Part shown: positions 32,988 to 42,088 of the stretch, one piece after another
Layout: each line of letters opens with the position of its first letter
How positions within the stretch are numbered: position 1 is the stretch's first letter
Assembly: GCA_949283305.1 (NCBI GenBank)
Contig: CASDRU010000018.1
Coordinates: forward strand, 124,001-188,000
Direction of reading: 5' to 3'
DNA from: an uncultured Spirochaetales bacterium
GTDB lineage: Bacteria; Spirochaetota; Spirochaetia; Sphaerochaetales; Sphaerochaetaceae
Length of the DNA stretch: 64,000 nucleotides
Program-made: the position numbers and the translations under genes
The notes under the pieces: model-generated
The model's database searches: none
Seen by the model: only the letters and a program-made list of their open reading frames with translations
Told to the model about the DNA's origin: nothing

Positions 32988-33112
32988 AAAAAAGAATGAA
33001 ATGTTAAAAATATTGCTGAATTTATCGGATATTTTGTAAATTTTTCAAATATTTTGCTAAATTTCTGTTAAAAATTTCATGTTGCTCTGAAAAAAAGCGC
33101 TAAACAATTTAA

Positions 33113-33129
33113 TTGTCCGGTATGGACAA
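33113..33129 (+). promoter_or_regulatory. Palindromic site upstream of the sugar ABC operon
   Basis: TTGTCC and GGACAA form a perfect 6-bp inverted repeat with a 5-base centre, ending one base before the AAAGGAG ribosome site region of the binding-protein gene. It could be an operator or an mRNA 5' hairpin. The 110 bases upstream are very AT-rich with phased A/T tracts. Confidence 0.45.
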
Positions 33130-33141
33130 AAGGAGTACGCA

Positions 33142-34404
33142 ATGAAAAAACTATTAGTAGTATTGCTCGTTCTCATAATGTCTTTCTCCGTTTTTGCTGG
33201 CGGAGCAGATGAAAAGACTGAGGATGGAGTTACAACACTTACATTCGCAACATGGGATTATGCATCCAATGTTTATATCTCAAAGGCAATTGAGGCATTT
33301 GAGGCTGCTAACCCGGATATCAAGATTGAAGTTCAGGATACACCTGCTGCTGACTATGTGACAAAGCTCACAACACAGCTCAACGGTGGATCTGATGTAG
33401 ATATCTTCATGGTCAAGGAAGCTGACAAGATCAAGCCTTTCTATGACCGCGGACAGCTTGCAAATCTTTCTGATTACATTGAAAGAGACGGAATCGACAT
33501 GTCAAGATACAACGGCGCAGATGCAAACTTCATCTTTGATGGAGACACATACGGCATGCCGCTGAGAACTGACCAGTATGTTCTCTTCTACAACAAGGAC
33601 ATCTTTGATGCAGCTGGCGTTGACTATCCTACAAACGACATGACATGGGCAGAGTTTGAAGAGCTTGCTGCTAAAGTCACAATGGGAAGCGGTGCTACAA
33701 AGCAGTACGGTGCTTATTTCCACTCATGGAACGCATGTGTCCAGAACTGGGCAGTGCAGGATGGAAAGCGCACAATCATGAACGGCGAGTACTCATTCTT
33801 CAAGCCATACTATGAGATGGTTCTCAGAATGCAGGAAGCTGGAACATGCATGGCATTTTCTCAGATTCAGGCTTCAGGACTTTCATACACAGATGTATTC
33901 GAACAGGGACTTGCCGCTATGGTTCCAATGGGTTCATGGCTCATCAACACTCTCGTAAATGATGTCAAGAGCGGAAAGACAGATGTCAACTGGGGCGTTG
34001 CAGTAGTTCCGCATGCAGAGGATGTACCTGCTGGCTACACAGTCGGAGCAACAACTCCTGTATGCATCAACAATGCAAGCGACAACAAGGACGCTGCATG
34101 GAGATTCGTATCTTTCTTCTGCGGTGAGGAAGGCGCTCAGATCATGGCTGAGAACGGACAGATTCCAGCCCTCTCAGGCGATGAGTATCTTGAGACATTC
34201 ACATCAATTGACGGAATGCCAGAAGGAGTCAAGGAAGGACTTTATGTTGCACACCTTTCTCCGGACCGCCCGGCAATGGACAACGTAACACAGATTGACC
34301 AGATGCTTCTTGCAGAACATCAGCTCATTCTCCTTGGAGAGCAGACAGTTGATGAAGGTATTGCAAACATGAATGCAAGATATGCAGAGATCATGGGCAA
34401 CTGA
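33142..34404 (+). CDS. Sugar ABC transporter substrate-binding protein
   Basis: A 420-residue family 1 extracellular solute-binding protein. Signal peptide residues 1-19 (MKKLLVVLLVLIMSFSVFA). The body follows the family: TLTFATWDYASN at the start, SDVDIFMVKEADKIKPFYDRG, YGMPLRTDQYVLFYNKDIFDAAGVDYP, AAMVPMGSWLI, and AAWRFVSFFCGEEGAQI. The ligand is probably a sugar or oligosaccharide; identity is not decidable. A good AAAGGAG site precedes the ATG. It heads an operon with two permeases; no ATPase gene is present, so a shared MsiK-like ATPase elsewhere is implied. Confidence 0.92.
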   Translation: MKKLLVVLLVLIMSFSVFAGGADEKTEDGVTTLTFATWDYASNVYISKAIEAFEAANPDIKIEVQDTPAADYVTKLTTQLNGGSDVDIFMVKEADKIKPFYDRGQLANLSDYIERDGIDMSRYNGADANFIFDGDTYGMPLRTDQYVLFYNKDIFDAAGVDYPTNDMTWAEFEELAAKVTMGSGATKQYGAYFHSWNACVQNWAVQDGKRTIMNGEYSFFKPYYEMVLRMQEAGTCMAFSQIQASGLSYTDVFEQGLAAMVPMGSWLINTLVNDVKSGKTDVNWGVAVVPHAEDVPAGYTVGATTPVCINNASDNKDAAWRFVSFFCGEEGAQIMAENGQIPALSGDEYLETFTSIDGMPEGVKEGLYVAHLSPDRPAMDNVTQIDQMLLAEHQLILLGEQTVDEGIANMNARYAEIMGN

Positions 34405-34421
34405 TAAAGACCAAACAGAAA

Positions 34422-34446
34422 GGGGCTGCTCAGGCAGCCTCTTTTT
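34422..34446 (+). terminator. Intercistronic hairpin/attenuator after the sugar-binding protein
   Basis: GGGGCTGC (34422-34429) pairs with GCAGCCTC (34434-34441), loop of four, followed by TTTTT. It should lower permease expression relative to the binding protein, as is usual for ABC import operons. Confidence 0.8.
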
Positions 34447-34470
34447 CATCTTAAAACAAGGAGGGACTCT

Positions 34471-35382
34471 ATGGCAGAAAAGACAGTATCTGAAAGAAAG
34501 AAAGGCTCATTGAAAGCAAAGAGAGCCCTTATCGGATACTCTTTCATCGCACCGAATTTTCTGGGTTTTGCCATCTTCATTCTTGTTCCTGTCCTTTTCA
34601 CCCTGATTCTTGGTGTCATGGACTGGGATGGATTCAATGCAATGACATTTGCAGGCCTGGACAACTTCAGGGCGATTTTCAAGGACAGAGTGTTCAAGAG
34701 TGCATTCTGGCTTACTCTTTTGTATGTAGTATGCGCTGTTCTCTTTACTCTTGTCGCATCTCTCGGCCTTGCCTGCGCGCTTAACAAGAAGATAAAGGGC
34801 AGGGATGCTTTCAGAAGTGCTATTTTCTTTCCGTATGTTGCTTCAATGATTGCAATCGGAGCTGTGTGGAAGCAGCTTTTTGAGGCAAACTACGGACCGA
34901 TCAATCATCTGTTGAGATCAATCGGGATTTCCAATCCCCCCGGATGGTTTGCGTCAACAGATGCCGCAATCTGGGGTGTGATAATCGTATCTGTATGGAA
35001 ATTCATGGGATACTACATGCTTATATATCTTGCAGGTCTTCAGGATATTCCTAACCAGCTTTACGAGGCAGCCACGCTTGACGGCGCATCCGGATGGCAG
35101 AGGTTCACAAAGATCACATTCCCGATGCTCACGCCAAGCACGTTCTTTGTCTTCATGATGCTTACAATCAACAGCTTCAAGAGCTTTGACCTGATATATG
35201 CTCTAACTCAGGGCGGTCCTGGAACAAGCACGACGCTTTTAGCCAATTACATCTATAACCAGACATTCATCTACTGGGACTATGGAAAGAGTGCCGCAGC
35301 GTCAATCATTCTGTTCCTGATGGTTCTCATGGTGACAATCATACAGTTCCGCGGTGAGAAGAAATTCACCGATTATCTATGA
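34471..35382 (+). CDS. Sugar ABC transporter permease (MalF-like)
   Basis: A 303-residue inner-membrane permease with six predicted transmembrane helices. The ATPase-contact EAA loop is YEAATLDGASGWQRFTKITFP near residue 205. The opening ALIGYSFIAPNFLGFAIFIL is typical of the sugar-type family. A strong AAGGAGG site precedes the ATG. Partner of the next permease. Confidence 0.93.
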   Translation: MAEKTVSERKKGSLKAKRALIGYSFIAPNFLGFAIFILVPVLFTLILGVMDWDGFNAMTFAGLDNFRAIFKDRVFKSAFWLTLLYVVCAVLFTLVASLGLACALNKKIKGRDAFRSAIFFPYVASMIAIGAVWKQLFEANYGPINHLLRSIGISNPPGWFASTDAAIWGVIIVSVWKFMGYYMLIYLAGLQDIPNQLYEAATLDGASGWQRFTKITFPMLTPSTFFVFMMLTINSFKSFDLIYALTQGGPGTSTTLLANYIYNQTFIYWDYGKSAAASIILFLMVLMVTIIQFRGEKKFTDYL

Positions 35383-35398
35383 TGAGGAGGCAGATATC

Positions 35399-36232
35399 AT
35401 GATGGTAGAAAAAAGAAGTTTGTGGAAAACCATACTCATTTATATTATGCTTGCTGTCCTCACAATCGTGACCCTTCTTCCGCTTGTATGGATGCTCTCA
35501 TCCTCATTCAAGCTTTCCAGTGAGGTATTCTCGTTCCCAATCAAGTGGATTCCGGAGAAGTTCCATTGGGAGAACTATGTTCTCATCTGGGAGAAAATAG
35601 ATCTTGCAAGGTATACATTCAACTCCTTCAAGCTCTCTATCATAATCACTGCAATCCAGCTGCTCACATCAAGCTTTGCAGCATATGGATTCAGCAAGTG
35701 CCATTTCCCGGGACGTGACAAGCTCTTCTTGGCATATATTGCTACAATCGCAATCCCATGGCAGGTGTACATGCTTCCGCAGTACATAATGATGCAGAAG
35801 TTCTCATTAATTGACACGCATCTGTCAATCATACTTCTGCAGAGCTTCACAGCATTCGGAGTATTCCTTTTAAGACAGTTCTATATTACAATTCCAGATG
35901 AACTGCTTGAGGCGGCCCGAATCGACGGACTTACAGAGTATGGAACCTTTGCAAGGATAGTCCTTCCTCTTACAAAGCCTGCTATGGCAACTCTGACCAT
36001 AATGAGCTTTGTCACAGTATGGAATGACTACATGGGACCGATGATCTACTTCAACAGCAACAAAAACAAGACAATCCAGCTTGGTATCCAGCTGTTTGTC
36101 GGTCAGTATTCTGCTGAATATGGTCTTATCATGGCAACCAGTGTTCTTGCAGTTGTTCCTGTATTCATAGTCTTCCTAGCTTTCCAGCGTTTCTTCGTAG
36201 AGGGAATCGCATCAAGCGGACTGAAAGGCTGA
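35399..36232 (+). CDS. Sugar ABC transporter permease (MalG-like)
   Basis: A 277-residue permease with six transmembrane helices. The EAA loop is LLEAARIDGLTEYGTFARIVL. I placed the start at ATG 35399, behind GAGGAGG, in place of an in-frame upstream start that overlaps the first permease. The stop overlaps the following mmcQ start (TGATG). Confidence 0.92.
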   Translation: MMVEKRSLWKTILIYIMLAVLTIVTLLPLVWMLSSSFKLSSEVFSFPIKWIPEKFHWENYVLIWEKIDLARYTFNSFKLSIIITAIQLLTSSFAAYGFSKCHFPGRDKLFLAYIATIAIPWQVYMLPQYIMMQKFSLIDTHLSIILLQSFTAFGVFLLRQFYITIPDELLEAARIDGLTEYGTFARIVLPLTKPAMATLTIMSFVTVWNDYMGPMIYFNSNKNKTIQLGIQLFVGQYSAEYGLIMATSVLAVVPVFIVFLAFQRFFVEGIASSGLKG

Positions 36233-36708
36233 TGAAGGAAATAAAGGAATTATACAAAATATTTACAGATGAGGCTCTCCATTCTCCTCTTTTCAAGGAG
36301 GATGGAGATTCTTTTGTCCTTGAAAGGAATCTTTCCGCTTCCTTTACTCTCTGTCTTTTTGTCAGAAAAGACAAAAGAGTGTTTTCTGAAGTCTATGATG
36401 AGGATGGGGAGACTTTCCTTCCTTATTCGATTGCAGGGTACTCGGGCACACTTTTATCTAGGATTCAAGAGGAAATAGACCAGATAGTCTCGTCTTTGAG
36501 AAACATACATAGCAATTCCTCCTTAGAAAAAGAAATACTTGCATATGTCAGAGAAATATACTCAACATCTGCAGAATCCCTCTTTGGCGATGATACACTG
36601 GTTCTCCGCAGAAACGATACCAGGAAATGGTATGGCATAATAATGAGCGTGAGAAAGAGCAAGATAACTGGAGACAGCCAGAGCATTGTACGCATTGTCA
36701 ACATGAGA
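36232..36708 (+). pseudogene. MmcQ/YjbR family gene, 5' part, interrupted by an insertion sequence
   Basis: N-terminal 159 residues of a MmcQ/YjbR (CyaY-like fold) protein, ending in RKWYGIIMSVRKSK and SIVRIVNMR. The open frame then runs into the element for 17 foreign codons (ending in VTARQY) and stops at 36762. The missing C terminus lies beyond the element at 38140-38298, in register: NMR joins VKREDVKDLV. The family function is uncertain, with a possible DNA-binding role. It was the last gene of the sugar ABC operon. Confidence 0.88.
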
Positions 36709-36871
36709 GTCAACTACCGCTGCCCTGAAGGGCACCAGCTTGTAACTGCCCGGCAGTACTGACGGCTTCAAGCCTCCTGCCTTTGATTCCTGCAGTTTCC
36801 TCATCAGACTTGCAGGTGGCGTTACATCGTGGGATGATTGACTGCACCCCATGACTGAAAGAATATATCCA
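36709..36871 (-). ncRNA. Candidate omega/reRNA scaffold of the TnpB element
   Basis: TnpB nucleases use a guide RNA transcribed from the 3' end of tnpB and the right end, with the guide extending into flanking DNA. Here that is the minus-strand stretch from the tnpB stop to 36709, which has several perfect short hairpins. The guide would be roughly 36708-36693, within mmcQ. Inferred from known TnpB elements; no transcription evidence. Confidence 0.5.
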
Positions 36872-37978
36872 TCAGTCAGTTTGTCTTATCTTATCCACTC
36901 CTCTCTTGTAGATATTCATCGCCGCTATTCTGTCATCATTTCCCTTATACCCACATACAGGACAGCAATAGAGCCTCTTTCTTCTGTCTCTTGCCTTCTT
37001 ATCCACATTAGAGCAATGAGGACATGTCTGTGATGTATGTCTCGCATCTACATATATCACACTGCATCCAGCAAGAGAGGCTTTGTATTCCAGTTTCTGC
37101 TGCAAGTCATAATAAGGCCATGACACACTTATATACCGGTCTTTCCTTTTTACCCTGCAACTCGCATTCCTCACTCCTGAGAGGTCCTCCAGAACGAAGG
37201 TCGTTCCCCTTTCATTCTCGGCGACGAGTGTCTTTGCCAGCTGATGGTTGACATCGTTGACGTAGCGGTTTTCTCTCTTTCCGATTGCCTTAAGCCTTCT
37301 TCTGGATGATGGTGTGTTACGCTTCTGCAGGGATTGTCGCACTGCCTTGAACTTCGCTCTCTTCTGTTTTACTTCTGCTCCCTTATAAAATCTTGTCTTT
37401 CTTCCGTCATAAGTCACTGCCGTGTTTATTATCCCCCTGTCAATTCCTACAACCTTTCTCTCATCCACAATGAAATCAGGACTGCTGAATGTGACGGAAA
37501 CATGGAAAAAAGCTTTGCCTTTCTTAAGGACAAGCTTTGCTCCTCCAAACACTGCATCCTTATTGATATACTTCTCAAATCCCTTTGAAGAAAAAGGAAC
37601 CTTTATTCTCTTCTCCAGTGTATTGAGAGAGACAATTCCTTTATCAATATCAATAGACCAGTCTCTTCCTCTTACCTGATCACACTGTGGTAAAGAGAAG
37701 AAAACAGGCTTATCAAGCTTTATACGGTTTTCCTTTGTATATCTTGCCGCAACTGTCCTTGTAACTGAGATTGCCATCTGGGCTTTAAGAGCGAACCTGT
37801 CTCTTAAAACTGCATAGCTCATTTTCTGAAGATTGACGGCATTGTACTCTTTTTCATAGAAGGCAATGGAGGAGACATGATTGCAAGCATCCCTGTAAGC
37901 ACAAGAGACAGCTTCAAGGAGTTTCAATTCCTCTGCATTCACGTTTAAAGAAAGCTTTGCTGTAATCACTGTTTCCAT
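36872..37978 (-). CDS. tnpB: TnpB RNA-guided nuclease
   Basis: A 368-residue TnpB. RuvC motif I is VVGIDRGIINTAV (Asp), motif II FVLEDLSGVRN (Glu), motif III DRIAAMNIYKRG (Asp), so all three catalytic acids are present. The zinc finger between II and III has CPHC and CPVC. Length is typical, so the protein is probably active. I chose the ATG at 37978 (METVITAKLSL) over one 36 bases upstream: TATAAT ends seven bases before it, suggesting a leaderless mRNA. Confidence 0.9.
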   Translation of the reverse strand: METVITAKLSLNVNAEELKLLEAVSCAYRDACNHVSSIAFYEKEYNAVNLQKMSYAVLRDRFALKAQMAISVTRTVAARYTKENRIKLDKPVFFSLPQCDQVRGRDWSIDIDKGIVSLNTLEKRIKVPFSSKGFEKYINKDAVFGGAKLVLKKGKAFFHVSVTFSSPDFIVDERKVVGIDRGIINTAVTYDGRKTRFYKGAEVKQKRAKFKAVRQSLQKRNTPSSRRRLKAIGKRENRYVNDVNHQLAKTLVAENERGTTFVLEDLSGVRNASCRVKRKDRYISVSWPYYDLQQKLEYKASLAGCSVIYVDARHTSQTCPHCSNVDKKARDRRKRLYCCPVCGYKGNDDRIAAMNIYKRGVDKIRQTD

Positions 37979-38139
37979 ACTTAAGATTATATTACAAAAC
38001 GATTTATTTAACAATAATATATCACATAGGAAAATTTAAGATTTCTGCTTGTTTTAGCTCTTTTCTTTCCTTTACAGAAATCGCAAAAACGCAATTCCTC
38101 TGCCGCCTTGAAAGACAGCAGCTTCCTTGCTGGTAAATT

Positions 38140-38298
38140 GTGAAAAGAGAGGATGTGAAGGACCTTGTTGACATGAGCAGAATATTTCCCGCATGGCATA
38201 TGTGCAAAAGAACATGGTGCACGGTAATCCTGGATGGCTCTCTTTCTCAAAAGGAGATACTCTCCATGCTCGATACAAGCTATACTCTTGCTCTCTAG
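38140..38298 (+). pseudogene. MmcQ/YjbR family gene, 3' part beyond the insertion
   Basis: Fifty-two codons that complete the interrupted gene: VKREDVKDLVDMSRIFPAWH and then MCKRTWCTVILDG, the conserved YjbR end, stopping at TAG 38296-38298. Its stop shares the palindrome CTAG with the TAG of the convergent flavodoxin-like gene. There is no own start signal, so it is not expressed as a separate protein. Confidence 0.85.
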
Positions 38299-38801
38299 CT
38301 TAATGCAAAGCGCTTGATCTCCTCGCTCTTTTTCAAATATGAATCATCTTCAGGGCATGAGATATGCATGAAGGAATAGTCCATCTTGATATATGCACTC
38401 ATTTCCTTGAACTGAGAGTCAAGAAGAGAGTACTCGACATCGTTTTCATCTGCCATGGCATTTAAAATCACTTTCAGCTTCTTTCCTTCAAGCTTATCGC
38501 TGAATGCATAGACTCTGTCTATAATCAGCTTGAGCTGGGCCGTGATGCTCCACCAGTAGATTGGAGATGAGATTATTATCTCGTCAGCTTCTGTCATCAG
38601 AGCCCTAATCTTCTCCATGTCATCATTGATTGCACATTTTCCGTTCCCGTTTTTATGGCAGTACTCGCATGCAATACATGGGCTTATCTTATAATCCCTT
38701 GCAAAAATGACAGTGCTGTCTTTTTTGCAGGAAGAGATTATCCTTGCAATTCCGTCAGAATTCTTTCCCTTTCTCGGGCTGGATGCGATTATTAGTGTCA
38801 C
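38295..38801 (-). CDS. Flavodoxin-like NAD(P)H-dependent FMN reductase
   Basis: A 168-residue flavodoxin-fold protein. Phosphate-binding loop ASSPRKGKNSDGIAR at the N terminus; the segment ACEYCHKNGNGKCAINDDM and SSPIYWWSITAQLKLIIDR is typical of iron-sulfur flavoprotein/NADPH-dependent FMN reductase relatives. It starts with GTG, behind AGGAGG. Possible roles are quinone or flavin reduction; the electron partner is unknown. Confidence 0.85.
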   Translation of the reverse strand: MTLIIASSPRKGKNSDGIARIISSCKKDSTVIFARDYKISPCIACEYCHKNGNGKCAINDDMEKIRALMTEADEIIISSPIYWWSITAQLKLIIDRVYAFSDKLEGKKLKVILNAMADENDVEYSLLDSQFKEMSAYIKMDYSFMHISCPEDDSYLKKSEEIKRFALS

Positions 38802-38871
38802 TGCTGATCCTCCTGAATTAATAATAGCACTTCTTGAAGGAAAAATATTAAGAATGTAGAATAAATCTGTT

Positions 38872-40158
38872 ATGCAAAAAAAGGCAAGACATCAATCACC
38901 GTCGCTGAAGCTGGCTCTCGGCTTCCTTGTTTTCATATTAATTGGAACATTTCTTCTTTTCCTTCCAATCTCGCATCAGGAAGGAAAGAGTCTCAGCTTT
39001 ATTGACTCCCTTGTTCTTGCAACAAGCGCTGTATGCGTGACAGGACTGACTCCTGTCGATTTAAGTCAGACACTTTCTTATTTCGGCTCAACTGTGATGA
39101 TGGTTCTCTTTCAGATCGGAGGACTTGGATACTCTGTCATAGCTGTAACTCTTATAGCCCTCTCATCAAGGAAGGTTGACCTCCTCAACCGGGGCATACT
39201 CCGTGACAGTCTTATAAGCGACAACAGAATGGACATAATGTTCCTGCTCAAGTTCACGCTTGCAACCACATTTTTAATTGAGGCAATAGGAGCTCTTCTT
39301 CTTTTCATGGGCTTTTACGGGGATATGAGCACCCCAAGAGCCATCTATGTGGCAATCTTCACATCCCTTGCCGCATTCAACAACGCAGGCTTCGATCTCT
39401 TCTCGACAAGCCTTGTCTCGTATTATGACTCTCCGCTTGTCATCCTCACTGTTGCCGGCCTTATAATTTGCGGAGGACTGGGCTTTGTAATCTATCTTGA
39501 GGCTATGAACCACAGAAAAGGCAAGAAATTCTCTCTTCATTTCAAGGTCGTGCTCATGATGACTGCAATACTTCTTCTTGTCGGGACAGTTTTATTCCGC
39601 CTCACAATGCCGGTCAACATGCTCAATGCGTTCTTCCAGTCTGTGACTACAAGGACAGCAGGATTCTTCTCATATGACCAGAGCATGCTTTCCAATGCGG
39701 CAATCGTGCTGACAATAATACTCATGTATATCGGGGCAAGCCCCGGATCCACTGGCGGTGGAATAAAGACAACGACTTTCTTTGTCTCATTCAAGGCAGG
39801 ATTTTCGATAATCACAGGAAGAAATCCTTCCTCATTCAAAAGAAGCCTCGGCTATGATGTCATCTTGAAGGCCCTCATTCTCATTGTGCTTTCGATAATG
39901 CTCTGCACTTTAGGCTTTCTGATAATGACAATCACCGATCCTGATATCGCACCGATAAAACTGCTTTATGAGACAGTGTCCGCCTTCGGAACAGTCGGGC
40001 TTTCAATGGCTGTTACTCCTGAGCTTTCTATTGGCGGAAAACTTGTTATAATTATACTGATGTATGCCGGTCGAGTTGGAATACTCACGCTTATAAGCGT
40101 GTTCTCCAGAAAAGCAAGGCAGGCAAAATATGTTGAGGAAAAGGTGGCTATAGGCTGA
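38872..40158 (+). CDS. ktrB: KtrB/TrkH family potassium channel subunit
   Basis: A 428-residue membrane protein with four M1-P-M2 repeats. The four selectivity-filter glycines are visible: AVCVTGLTPVDL, FNNAGFDLF, VTTRTAGFFS and SAFGTVGLSM. The short length is KtrB-like rather than TrkH-like. The start has no Shine-Dalgarno; a TAGAAT element lies nine bases upstream. The stop overlaps the ktrA start. Confidence 0.93.
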   Translation: MQKKARHQSPSLKLALGFLVFILIGTFLLFLPISHQEGKSLSFIDSLVLATSAVCVTGLTPVDLSQTLSYFGSTVMMVLFQIGGLGYSVIAVTLIALSSRKVDLLNRGILRDSLISDNRMDIMFLLKFTLATTFLIEAIGALLLFMGFYGDMSTPRAIYVAIFTSLAAFNNAGFDLFSTSLVSYYDSPLVILTVAGLIICGGLGFVIYLEAMNHRKGKKFSLHFKVVLMMTAILLLVGTVLFRLTMPVNMLNAFFQSVTTRTAGFFSYDQSMLSNAAIVLTIILMYIGASPGSTGGGIKTTTFFVSFKAGFSIITGRNPSSFKRSLGYDVILKALILIVLSIMLCTLGFLIMTITDPDIAPIKLLYETVSAFGTVGLSMAVTPELSIGGKLVIIILMYAGRVGILTLISVFSRKARQAKYVEEKVAIG

Positions 40159-40829
40159 TGAAAAAGAACAATCAGATTTTCGGAATAATAGGAGTGGGCC
40201 GGTTCGGGCTTGCTGTTGCTGAGGAGCTTCTTCAGCGGGATAAAAGCGTTATTGCAATTGACAAGGACCCTGCAAGGCTCAAGCCTCTTCAGGATACTTC
40301 AGCTGAGCTCTTCATCGTAGAGCAGATGAGCAAGGAGGCGCTTGAGGAAACAGGAATCCAGGATGCGGATGTCATAGTAATCGGAATAGGAAAGGATATA
40401 GAAAGCAGTATCCTTGCAGCTCTCAATGCCAAGGAATTCGGAATTGAGAGAGTAATATGCAAGGCCCTTTCTCGCGATCATGCGAAAATCCTCGAGAAAA
40501 TAGGAGCTGAATACATATTTCCTGAAACAGATATCGGAAAGAGACTTGCAATAAGGCTTTCATCCAGAGTCACTCTAGATGTGCTTCCTCTTTCAGATGA
40601 GTTCTCGATTGTGCAGATAAAAGTCCCGGAATATTATGACGGGATGACAGTCCTTGAGACAAATTTCAGAAAGAAATTCAATGTCAACATCATTGCCGTG
40701 ATATCTGACGGAAGGGCAAGCGGTGTGGTTGGCCCTGATACTGTGCTGAAAAAAGATGATTTCATTGTGGTCTGCGGGTCAAATGAATCTCTTGAGAAGC
40801 TTCAGGAAGAGTTTGAAAGGAGAGTCTGA
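40158..40829 (+). CDS. ktrA: KtrA/TrkA potassium uptake regulatory subunit
   Basis: A 223-residue RCK-domain regulator that binds NAD(H)/ATP/ADP and gates KtrB. The Rossmann motif is GIIGVGRFGLAVAEELL, with the acidic strand end VIAIDKDPARL. The C-terminal RCK_C domain begins near residue 135. It overlaps ktrB and the next gene by one base each. Confidence 0.94.
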   Translation: MKKNNQIFGIIGVGRFGLAVAEELLQRDKSVIAIDKDPARLKPLQDTSAELFIVEQMSKEALEETGIQDADVIVIGIGKDIESSILAALNAKEFGIERVICKALSRDHAKILEKIGAEYIFPETDIGKRLAIRLSSRVTLDVLPLSDEFSIVQIKVPEYYDGMTVLETNFRKKFNVNIIAVISDGRASGVVGPDTVLKKDDFIVVCGSNESLEKLQEEFERRV

Positions 40830-42088
40830 TGCTCAAGTCTGATCTTTATTCCTTTCTTGACAGTGCGATCAGTGTTTATCATACAAGCAGCAGAATAAGG
40901 GAATATCTTCTTTCAAAGGGCTTTTATGAGCTGAGAGAGGATGAGGTTTTTTCCATCAACCGCGGAGGAAAGTATTTCGTCATAAGGAACTCATGTGCTG
41001 TAATTGCTTTCACTGTTCCAGAGAACTTTGATTCATTTTCCATAATCTCGAGCCATATAGACAGCCCTACATTCAAGGTCAAAGTGAATCCCATGATAAA
41101 GAAGGTGACAGGAAATACTTTGAATGTAGAGCCATACGGCGGCATGCTTGTCTATTCTTTCTTTGACAGACCTTCAGACATAGCAGGAAGGTTTTTTGTG
41201 CTTGAAGATGGCAAGGTATGTGAGCGCCTGTTCTCTTTTTCCCGCCCTGTATGCTCACTTGTGTCCCTGGCAATCCACCAGAACAGGAAAGCAAATGAAG
41301 GTCTTTCATTCTCGATGCAGAATGAGGTTCAGCCCCTTCTTTCCCTGCCTGGAGGAAAAGACGATCTTCTTGAGGTAGCTGCTGACATCCTAAAAGTCAA
41401 GAAGGACCAGATTCTCTCATATGATCTTTTTCTTGCAAATACTGAAAAGGCAGAGGAGTGGGGACTCAACAGAGAATTCTTTTCTTCTGCCCGCATAGAT
41501 GATCTCAGCTCTGCATATCTTTCAATCAGAGCCCTCTCTGAGTGTGAAAGCGGCAGGAGAATCAACATAGCGGCTCTCTTCAATAATGAGGAAGTCGGTT
41601 CTTCAAGCAACGAAGGAGCGCTTTCCACATTCCTTTCTGATACAATCTCAAGAATCTCTTCAGCACTTGACATAAGTGATGAGGAGCGCCTTGTAATGTA
41701 TTCAAAATCCCTTATCATCTCTTCTGACAACGCTCATGCAAAGCATCCGTGTTTTGAGTCAAAGAGCGATGTGACGAACACTGTCAGATTGAACGGGGGA
41801 GTTGTTATAAAGTACTCTGCCAATTTGAAATACACAACGGATGCTTATTCTGCAGCGTGTGTCAAAGCTCTCATGATTGAGAACAAAATAAAATACCAGG
41901 AATTTGTAAACAACTCAGATGTTCCTGGCGGATCGACACTGGGAAATCTTTCTCTTCACAGGGCAGGCATACCAACCTGCGATGTAGGAATGCCTCAGCT
42001 TGCCATGCATTCGAGCTATGAGACAGCGGGTGTCGATGATATTGAGAGCATGTACAGGCTATTCTGTGCTTTCTACAAGAAAAGATGA
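40829..42088 (+). CDS. M18 family aminopeptidase
   Basis: A 419-residue zinc aminopeptidase of the aspartyl aminopeptidase family (ApeB type). Metal and catalytic motifs in order: SSHIDSPTFKVK, FNNEEVGSSSNEGA, SSDNAHAKHP, and the C-terminal TCDVGMPQLAMHSSYE. Coupled to ktrA and to the following methyltransferase by overlapping start/stop, so it sits in a four-gene operon. Confidence 0.92.
   Translation: MLKSDLYSFLDSAISVYHTSSRIREYLLSKGFYELREDEVFSINRGGKYFVIRNSCAVIAFTVPENFDSFSIISSHIDSPTFKVKVNPMIKKVTGNTLNVEPYGGMLVYSFFDRPSDIAGRFFVLEDGKVCERLFSFSRPVCSLVSLAIHQNRKANEGLSFSMQNEVQPLLSLPGGKDDLLEVAADILKVKKDQILSYDLFLANTEKAEEWGLNREFFSSARIDDLSSAYLSIRALSECESGRRINIAALFNNEEVGSSSNEGALSTFLSDTISRISSALDISDEERLVMYSKSLIISSDNAHAKHPCFESKSDVTNTVRLNGGVVIKYSANLKYTTDAYSAACVKALMIENKIKYQEFVNNSDVPGGSTLGNLSLHRAGIPTCDVGMPQLAMHSSYETAGVDDIESMYRLFCAFYKKR

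What the first reader, a model, noticed from the sequence alone, without database searches (positions are those of the whole stretch)
36232..38298. mmcQ/yjbR split by a TnpB-only element with base-level boundaries
The two gene halves join in frame as NMR-VKRED when 36709-38139 is removed, which sets the element ends. On the minus strand the left end follows TTTTCAC (candidate target-adjacent motif) and the right end finishes with TTGAC. TnpB retains all three catalytic acids, so the element is probably a working RNA-guided nuclease, with its guide reading from the disrupted gene.
Basis: partly seen in the sequence, partly recalled or inferred. Interest (0 to 1): 0.6.

Follow-up and report, generated by a model that had tools for sequence, protein, structure and literature searches.

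The report
Mobile RNA-guided nuclease element splits mmcQ
A small "jumping" DNA element that carries only an RNA-guided DNA-cutting enzyme (TnpB) has landed inside a mmcQ/yjbR gene; comparison with relatives fixes both of its ends and its insertion motif, and shows a well-kept nuclease and guide RNA of a known kind.

Summary
Removing 36709-38139 rejoins a 211-codon YjbR/MmcQ frame. A sister species (G020, 93% identical) carries that frame uninterrupted, with no gap or target duplication at the junction. Other copies in related Spirochaetales genomes have exactly the same ends: left end after a motif, right end GGTAGTTGAC. Four of these copies also have empty sites elsewhere. Thirteen insertion sites of the family narrow the motif from TTTTCAC to TTYAC (usually TTCAC, preceded by a pyrimidine).

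TnpB is intact: D180, E264 and D349, four zinc-finger cysteines, dN/dS 0.11-0.17 between the main lineages, TnpB/Cas12f fold. The 142 nt before the right end form a conserved omegaRNA-like structure (14 of 29 pairs with double-sided changes, no shuffle as good). The guide would be the antisense strand of mmcQ.

This is a TnpB-only (IS1341-type) member of the IS200/IS605 group, with intact sequence hallmarks of an RNA-guided nuclease; activity is untested. No tnpA with matching ends was found. The genus's autonomous IS605-like elements use a different motif (TTTAT), so the mobilising enzyme is unknown. Side findings: two 106-nt derivatives made of left tip plus partial omegaRNA, and motif loss in three of five empty alleles. 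New member of a known kind.

The parts
36232..36708 (+). 5' part of mmcQ/yjbR (codons 1-159), ATG start overlapping the stop of the upstream ABC permease gene
   Evidence: ORF; Pfam YjbR on the joined frame; uninterrupted ortholog in G020
38140..38298 (+). 3' part of mmcQ/yjbR (52 codons and stop)
36709..38139 (-). TnpB-only IS200/IS605-group element, 1431 nt; left end at 38139, right end at 36709 (alternative placement 36711-38141 because of a shared 2-nt GT)
   Evidence: same ends in related copies; empty site in G020
38140..38144 (-). target-adjacent motif TTCAC (consensus TTYAC; position -6, at 38145, is a pyrimidine at all sites)
   Evidence: 13 insertion sites of this family plus one related left end
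38091..38130 (-). left-end subterminal hairpin
   Evidence: predicted fold; sequence conserved in other copies
36872..37978 (-). tnpB, 368 aa, complete
   Evidence: PF07282 and PF01385 above cut-off; NCBIfam guided_TnpB 173 bits vs cut-off 100; AsCas12f/TnpB fold
37439..37441 (-). RuvC catalytic D180 (GIDRG)
37187..37189 (-). RuvC catalytic E264 (LEDLSG)
36932..36934 (-). RuvC catalytic D349 (NDDRIAA)
36709..36850 (-). omegaRNA (reRNA) scaffold, 142 nt, ending in the right-end hairpin and GGTAGTTGAC
   Evidence: covariation; model search of whole genomes
36689..36708 (-). predicted guide (first 20 nt outside the right end: TCTCATGTTGACAATGCGTA), antisense strand of mmcQ
   Evidence: position relative to right end; guide length by analogy with ISDra2 (PMC8612924), not measured here

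Best explanation
A TnpB-only (IS1341-type) member of the IS200/IS605 group inserted as a single strand 3' of TTCAC in the antisense strand of a mmcQ/yjbR-family gene, without target duplication, and inactivated that gene. Its TnpB is kept as a functional RNA-guided nuclease: the 3' part of the tnpB transcript is processed to a 142-nt omegaRNA scaffold followed by a guide read from the flanking mmcQ sequence. The RNP would recognise TTYAC plus that sequence, which exists only in an allele without the element (an excision product or another cell's allele), cut it, and so favour copying the element back in. The resident site is spared because the right end reads GTTGAC rather than YTTYAC before the guide sequence. 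Movement needs a Y1 transposase supplied in trans, not identified. Shown: ends, motif, empty sites, gene disruption, intact catalytic residues, purifying selection, omegaRNA structure. Inferred: transcription, processing, cleavage, homing, identity of the transposase.
For: Empty mmcQ site in G020 with no gap. Base-exact shared ends in other copies with unrelated flanks. Exact empty sites for four further insertions: a UvrD/PcrA-like gene copy L039 empty in G061; L040 empty in G060; L042 empty in G063 and G064; the mini-copy of G020 empty in G000. TTYAC at 13/13 sites against 0.17% of positions in the window. TnpB families and fold. D/E/D invariant among ten homologs. dN/dS 0.11-0.17 between the main lineages. 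omegaRNA covariation 14 of 29 pairs, 0/500 shuffles as good. A TAM of the same kind, TCAC, is known for AmaTnpB, and TAMs were at most 5 nt (PMC10278001).
Against: No RNA, protein or cleavage data. In one in vitro screen only 27 of 59 TnpB orthologs were active (PMC10278001). No matching transposase was found in seven genomes. The G020 empty allele has TTTAT instead of TTYAC and one mismatch in the guide region, so it is not itself a good target.
Confidence: 0.85

Rival explanations
1. The element is a relic: inserted by an ancestral transposase, now immobile, TnpB intact only because the insertion is recent.
For: No tnpA in the element and none with matching ends in the seven genomes; decayed copies exist (G063:C25 and C46 with internal deletions, G000:C6 5'-truncated, G000:C22 remnant).
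Against: The intact copies are not one recent burst: dS up to 0.50 between lineages with dN/dS 0.11-0.17. Near-identical pairs (L041/L042, dS 0.05) at different sites in one genome show movement after those lineages separated. This speaks for continued activity of the family, not necessarily of this copy.
Confidence: 0.2
2. TnpB has been domesticated as a guided repressor or regulator (TldR-like) and is no longer a nuclease.
For: TnpB relatives without nuclease activity are known from the literature (own knowledge).
Against: All three catalytic acids and the zinc-finger cysteines are present and invariant; the locus still has transposon ends and no fixed genomic position.
Confidence: 0.03
3. 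The apparent split gene is an assembly artefact.
For: The window is from a fragmented assembly of 22 contigs; contigs of G020 break in this repeat.
Against: The window copy lies inside a 188-kb contig, with TTCAC, ends and frame exactly as at independent insertions in other assemblies.
Confidence: 0.02

Closest known systems
IS1341-type (TnpB-only) elements of the IS200/IS605 group
   Same: one tnpB gene between left and right ends, no tnpA; length 1431 nt and TnpB 368 aa lie in the published ranges (1252-2382 bp, 362-489 aa; PMC9956272)
   Different: none that sets it apart; here ends, motif and empty sites are documented at base level, which that paper says is still needed to judge whether IS1341 elements move
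ISDra2 TnpB and AmaTnpB (OMEGA nucleases)
   Same: RuvC D/E/D, zinc finger, omegaRNA overlapping the right end, motif immediately 5' of the target; AmaTnpB motif TCAC is contained in TTCAC (PMC8612924, PMC10278001)
   Different: ISDra2 motif is TTGAT; sequence similarity to ISDra2 TnpB is low (phmmer E about 1e-7), closer to Cas12f1 of the AsCas12f/OsCas12f kind
Autonomous tnpA+tnpB IS605-like family of the same genus (L012, L014, L024 and others)
   Same: right end ...GTTGAC, hairpins at both ends, same genus
   Different: carries a divergent tnpA; motif TTTAT, other left end and omegaRNA, TnpB only 35-38% identical
PATE-like derivative of Halanaerobium IS605
   Same: left-end piece fused to the right-end region including the omegaRNA part, as in the two 106-nt derivatives here (PMC7290912)
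   Different: here only about 13 nt of left end and 93 nt of the right end remain

Membership tests
IS200/IS605 group, TnpB-only (IS1341-type) | tnpB flanked by left and right ends with subterminal hairpins; no tnpA | tested here: met
   no tnpA ORF in 36709-38139
IS200/IS605 group, TnpB-only (IS1341-type) | insertion 3' of a short fixed motif without target duplication | tested here: met
IS200/IS605 group, TnpB-only (IS1341-type) | mobilised by a Y1 (HUH) transposase | tested here: inconclusive
   no Y1 gene with matching ends found in G000, G020, G060-G064; movement itself is shown by empty sites
TnpB / OMEGA RNA-guided nuclease | RuvC catalytic D, E, D and a zinc finger | tested here: met
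TnpB / OMEGA RNA-guided nuclease | TnpB fold | tested here: met
   AlphaFold2 model (pLDDT 75.7) against PDB: AsCas12f E 4.5e-19, ISDra2 TnpB-omegaRNA complex 8h1j E 6.2e-13
TnpB / OMEGA RNA-guided nuclease | structured omegaRNA at the right end, guide from flank | tested here: met
   structure by covariation; transcription not tested
TnpB / OMEGA RNA-guided nuclease | RNA-guided double-strand DNA cleavage next to the motif | not testable with these tools
   needs biochemistry
CRISPR-Cas12f | effector next to a CRISPR array | tested here: not met
   no direct-repeat array in 33000-42000; gene lies inside a transposon
YjbR/MmcQ (PF04237) | YjbR domain in the rejoined frame | tested here: met

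The most novel reading that the evidence does not exclude
The family spreads its guide RNA apart from its nuclease: 106-nt elements made of the left tip and a partial omegaRNA (G020:C13, G063:C51) and 5'-truncated copies with an intact omegaRNA (G000:C6) supply extra guides in trans to one TnpB, and the missing TTYAC in three of five empty alleles is escape from its cutting.
Probability: 0.08. Interest if true: 0.6.

Novelty: new member of a known kind. Interest (0 to 1): 0.33.

Why it matters
It gives a clean natural data set for a TnpB-only element: ends, motif, five empty sites, a covarying omegaRNA model and natural guides, in a lineage (gut-type Spirochaetales MAGs) where I found no characterised TnpB. 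Whether IS1341-type elements move at all was described as unclear (PMC9956272); the exact empty sites and the near-identical copies at different places show that this family has moved recently, and the absence of a matching tnpA makes the source of the transposase a concrete question. It does not change the general picture of TnpB.

Tried and rejected
Rfam: no match in 36500-38400, so the omegaRNA was modelled from homologs. The autonomous IS605-like elements of the genus were tested as donors of the transposase: their left ends and motif (TTTAT) differ, so they were rejected as an obvious match. TnpA loci of G060-G064 were compared with the element: no end similarity. mmcQ was not found in G060-G064, so only G020 gives a close empty allele. 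A TTYAC+guide target for this copy was not present in any fetched locus. G030 repeats that weakly match the RNA model belong to another repeat family with an end in GGTAGTTCAC. TnpB relatives in viral contigs are distant for the window protein; L151-L153 (66-74% identical to L044) are relatives of the L044 protein and were used only as extra rows in the protein alignment. Single-sequence folding of the 106-nt pieces is not better than shuffles (z -0.4 to -0.9), whereas the 147-nt piece is (z -2.5).

Full report
Observation. The window lies at G000:C18:124001-188000 of a 1.49-Mb assembly. Reading 36232-36708 and 38140-38298 together gives a 211-aa frame with a YjbR domain (PF04237, E 1.4e-13, residues 111-209), so the insertion point (after residue 159) is inside the domain. 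The first stretch alone, 36232-36708, has no Pfam match.

Uninterrupted allele. A genus-mate, G020, has the same gene order with the gene uninterrupted (211 aa, 90% identical). The window with 36709-38139 left out aligns to it over 1038 nt, 93% identical, with no gap. There is no target duplication. Because GT occurs at both ends, the element could also be written 36711-38141; the placement after TTCAC follows the usual convention.

Other copies. Searches of GTDB genomes and of the related genomes gave more copies at 82-92% identity, complete, truncated or broken by contig ends. Where a left end is present, similarity begins at TTYAC and the element starts AATTTA(A/C)CAAGCAAGGAAGCTG with small variants; where a right end is present it stops at GGTAGTTGAC, and the flanks are unrelated. 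Over 14 left ends (13 of this family, one, L032, of another TnpB lineage) positions -5 to -1 are T, T, C/T, A, C; position -6 is always C or T; position -7 is not conserved. The motif is therefore TTYAC, not TTTTCAC. TTYAC occurs at 0.17% of positions on the two strands of the window.

More empty sites. Joined flanks of seven insertions were searched in nine genomes. L039, inserted in a gene whose joined frame reads like UvrD/PcrA helicase, is empty in G061 at 97% identity with TTCAC kept; L040 is empty in G060 (TTTAC); L042 is empty in G063 and G064 (TT-CAT); the mini-copy of G020 is empty in G000 (TTCTC). Together with mmcQ (TTTAT in G020) that is five empty sites. In three of them the motif is not intact. 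At 6-10% divergence that may be chance; it is recorded, not explained.

Protein. TnpB (36872-37978, minus, 368 aa) passes the Pfam cut-offs for PF07282 and PF01385 and NCBIfam guided_TnpB (173 bits, cut-off 100). By alignment to Cas12f structures the catalytic acids are D180, E264 and D349; they and the zinc-finger cysteines are invariant in ten homologs down to 48% identity. dN/dS between the window copy and four intact copies is 0.11-0.13, and 0.11-0.17 among the main lineages (two very close pairs give 0.27 and 0.32 on few changes). An AlphaFold2 model (mean pLDDT 75.7) matches AsCas12f (E 4.5e-19) and the ISDra2 TnpB-omegaRNA-DNA complex (E 6e-13). There is no CRISPR-like array nearby.

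Guide RNA. The 142 nt up to the right end are 94-97% identical between the window copy and intact copies, against 87-91% for the coding region. With homologs from G030, a Eubacteriaceae and an Oscillospiraceae MAG, RNAalifold gives 38 pairs, 16 with changes on both sides. For a 29-pair core, 96.9% of cells pair, 14 pairs have double-sided changes, none of 500 shuffles reaches these values, and sliding the partner by 1-3 columns collapses the pairing. Caveat: most rows are close relatives, so the double-sided changes come from three divergent rows. The guide would start at 36708 and run down into mmcQ antisense. The resident locus reads GTTGAC before the guide sequence and an empty site YTTYAC, which would explain self-sparing (inference).

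Genome-wide guides. The RNA model finds in G000 the window copy, a 5'-truncated copy at C6:348064-348355 (98% identical, complete omegaRNA, another flank), a remnant at C22 and a poor one at C1. G020 and G063 each have a 106-nt derivative in which the left tip is fused to the last 93 nt.

Transposase. The element has no tnpA. The genus carries another, autonomous family with divergent tnpA and tnpB, motif TTTAT and right end GGTCGTTGAC. No Y1 gene in G000, G020 or G060-G064 is bounded by ends like those of the window element, and G020 has no Y1 gene at all. A distant relative, L044 (48% identical TnpB), does have a divergent tnpA directly upstream of its tnpB, so loss of tnpA is plausible but not shown.

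How it most likely works. By analogy with ISDra2 and AmaTnpB (PMC8612924, PMC10278001): TnpB trims its own transcript to the omegaRNA, takes flanking sequence as guide, and cuts the motif-flanked empty site, promoting repair from the occupied copy. Shown here: ends, motif, empty sites, conserved protein and RNA. Not shown: expression, processing, cutting, homing.

Verdict. Confirmed, with the motif shortened to TTYAC. A new member of a known kind, unusually well delimited. Interest is moderate to low; the unexplained parts are the missing transposase, the stand-alone omegaRNA derivatives and motif loss at empty sites.

Noticed in passing
G020:C13:19866-19971 (L076 1488-1593) and G063:C51:37386-37491 (L082): Two 106-nt derivatives: about 13 nt of left end fused to the last 93 nt (partial omegaRNA, right end); G020's copy has an exact empty site in G000:C10. 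A 46-nt one sits in G063:C42 (L085).
   Followed up: partly
G000:C6:348064-348355 (L005/L059): 5'-truncated copy, 98.3% identical, complete omegaRNA with a different flank; the upstream ThiI-like ORF reads into the remnant, and a downstream ATPase ORF on the opposite strand ends inside the right end.
   Followed up: partly
L049, L107/L101, L099 at the junctions: Three of five empty alleles lack the TTYAC motif (TTTAT, TT-CAT, TTCTC); possibly chance, possibly escape from cutting.
   Followed up: no
L012, L014, L024, L022, L025, L017 and others; own genome C21 and C11: Autonomous tnpA/tnpB IS605-like family of the genus with motif TTTAT and right end GGTCGTTGAC; own genome has copies at contig ends, one with an internal deletion.
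   Followed up: partly
L032 (G035:C43) 650-2601: A left end like that of the window element precedes the N-terminal part of a different protein (735-1190), followed closely by a second TnpB gene on the opposite strand (1357-2601); looks like a nested insertion.
   Followed up: no
G000:C22:23166-23322 and G020:C8:21442-21473: The same flanking (guide) sequence follows a decayed right end in both species: an old shared insertion remnant.
   Followed up: no
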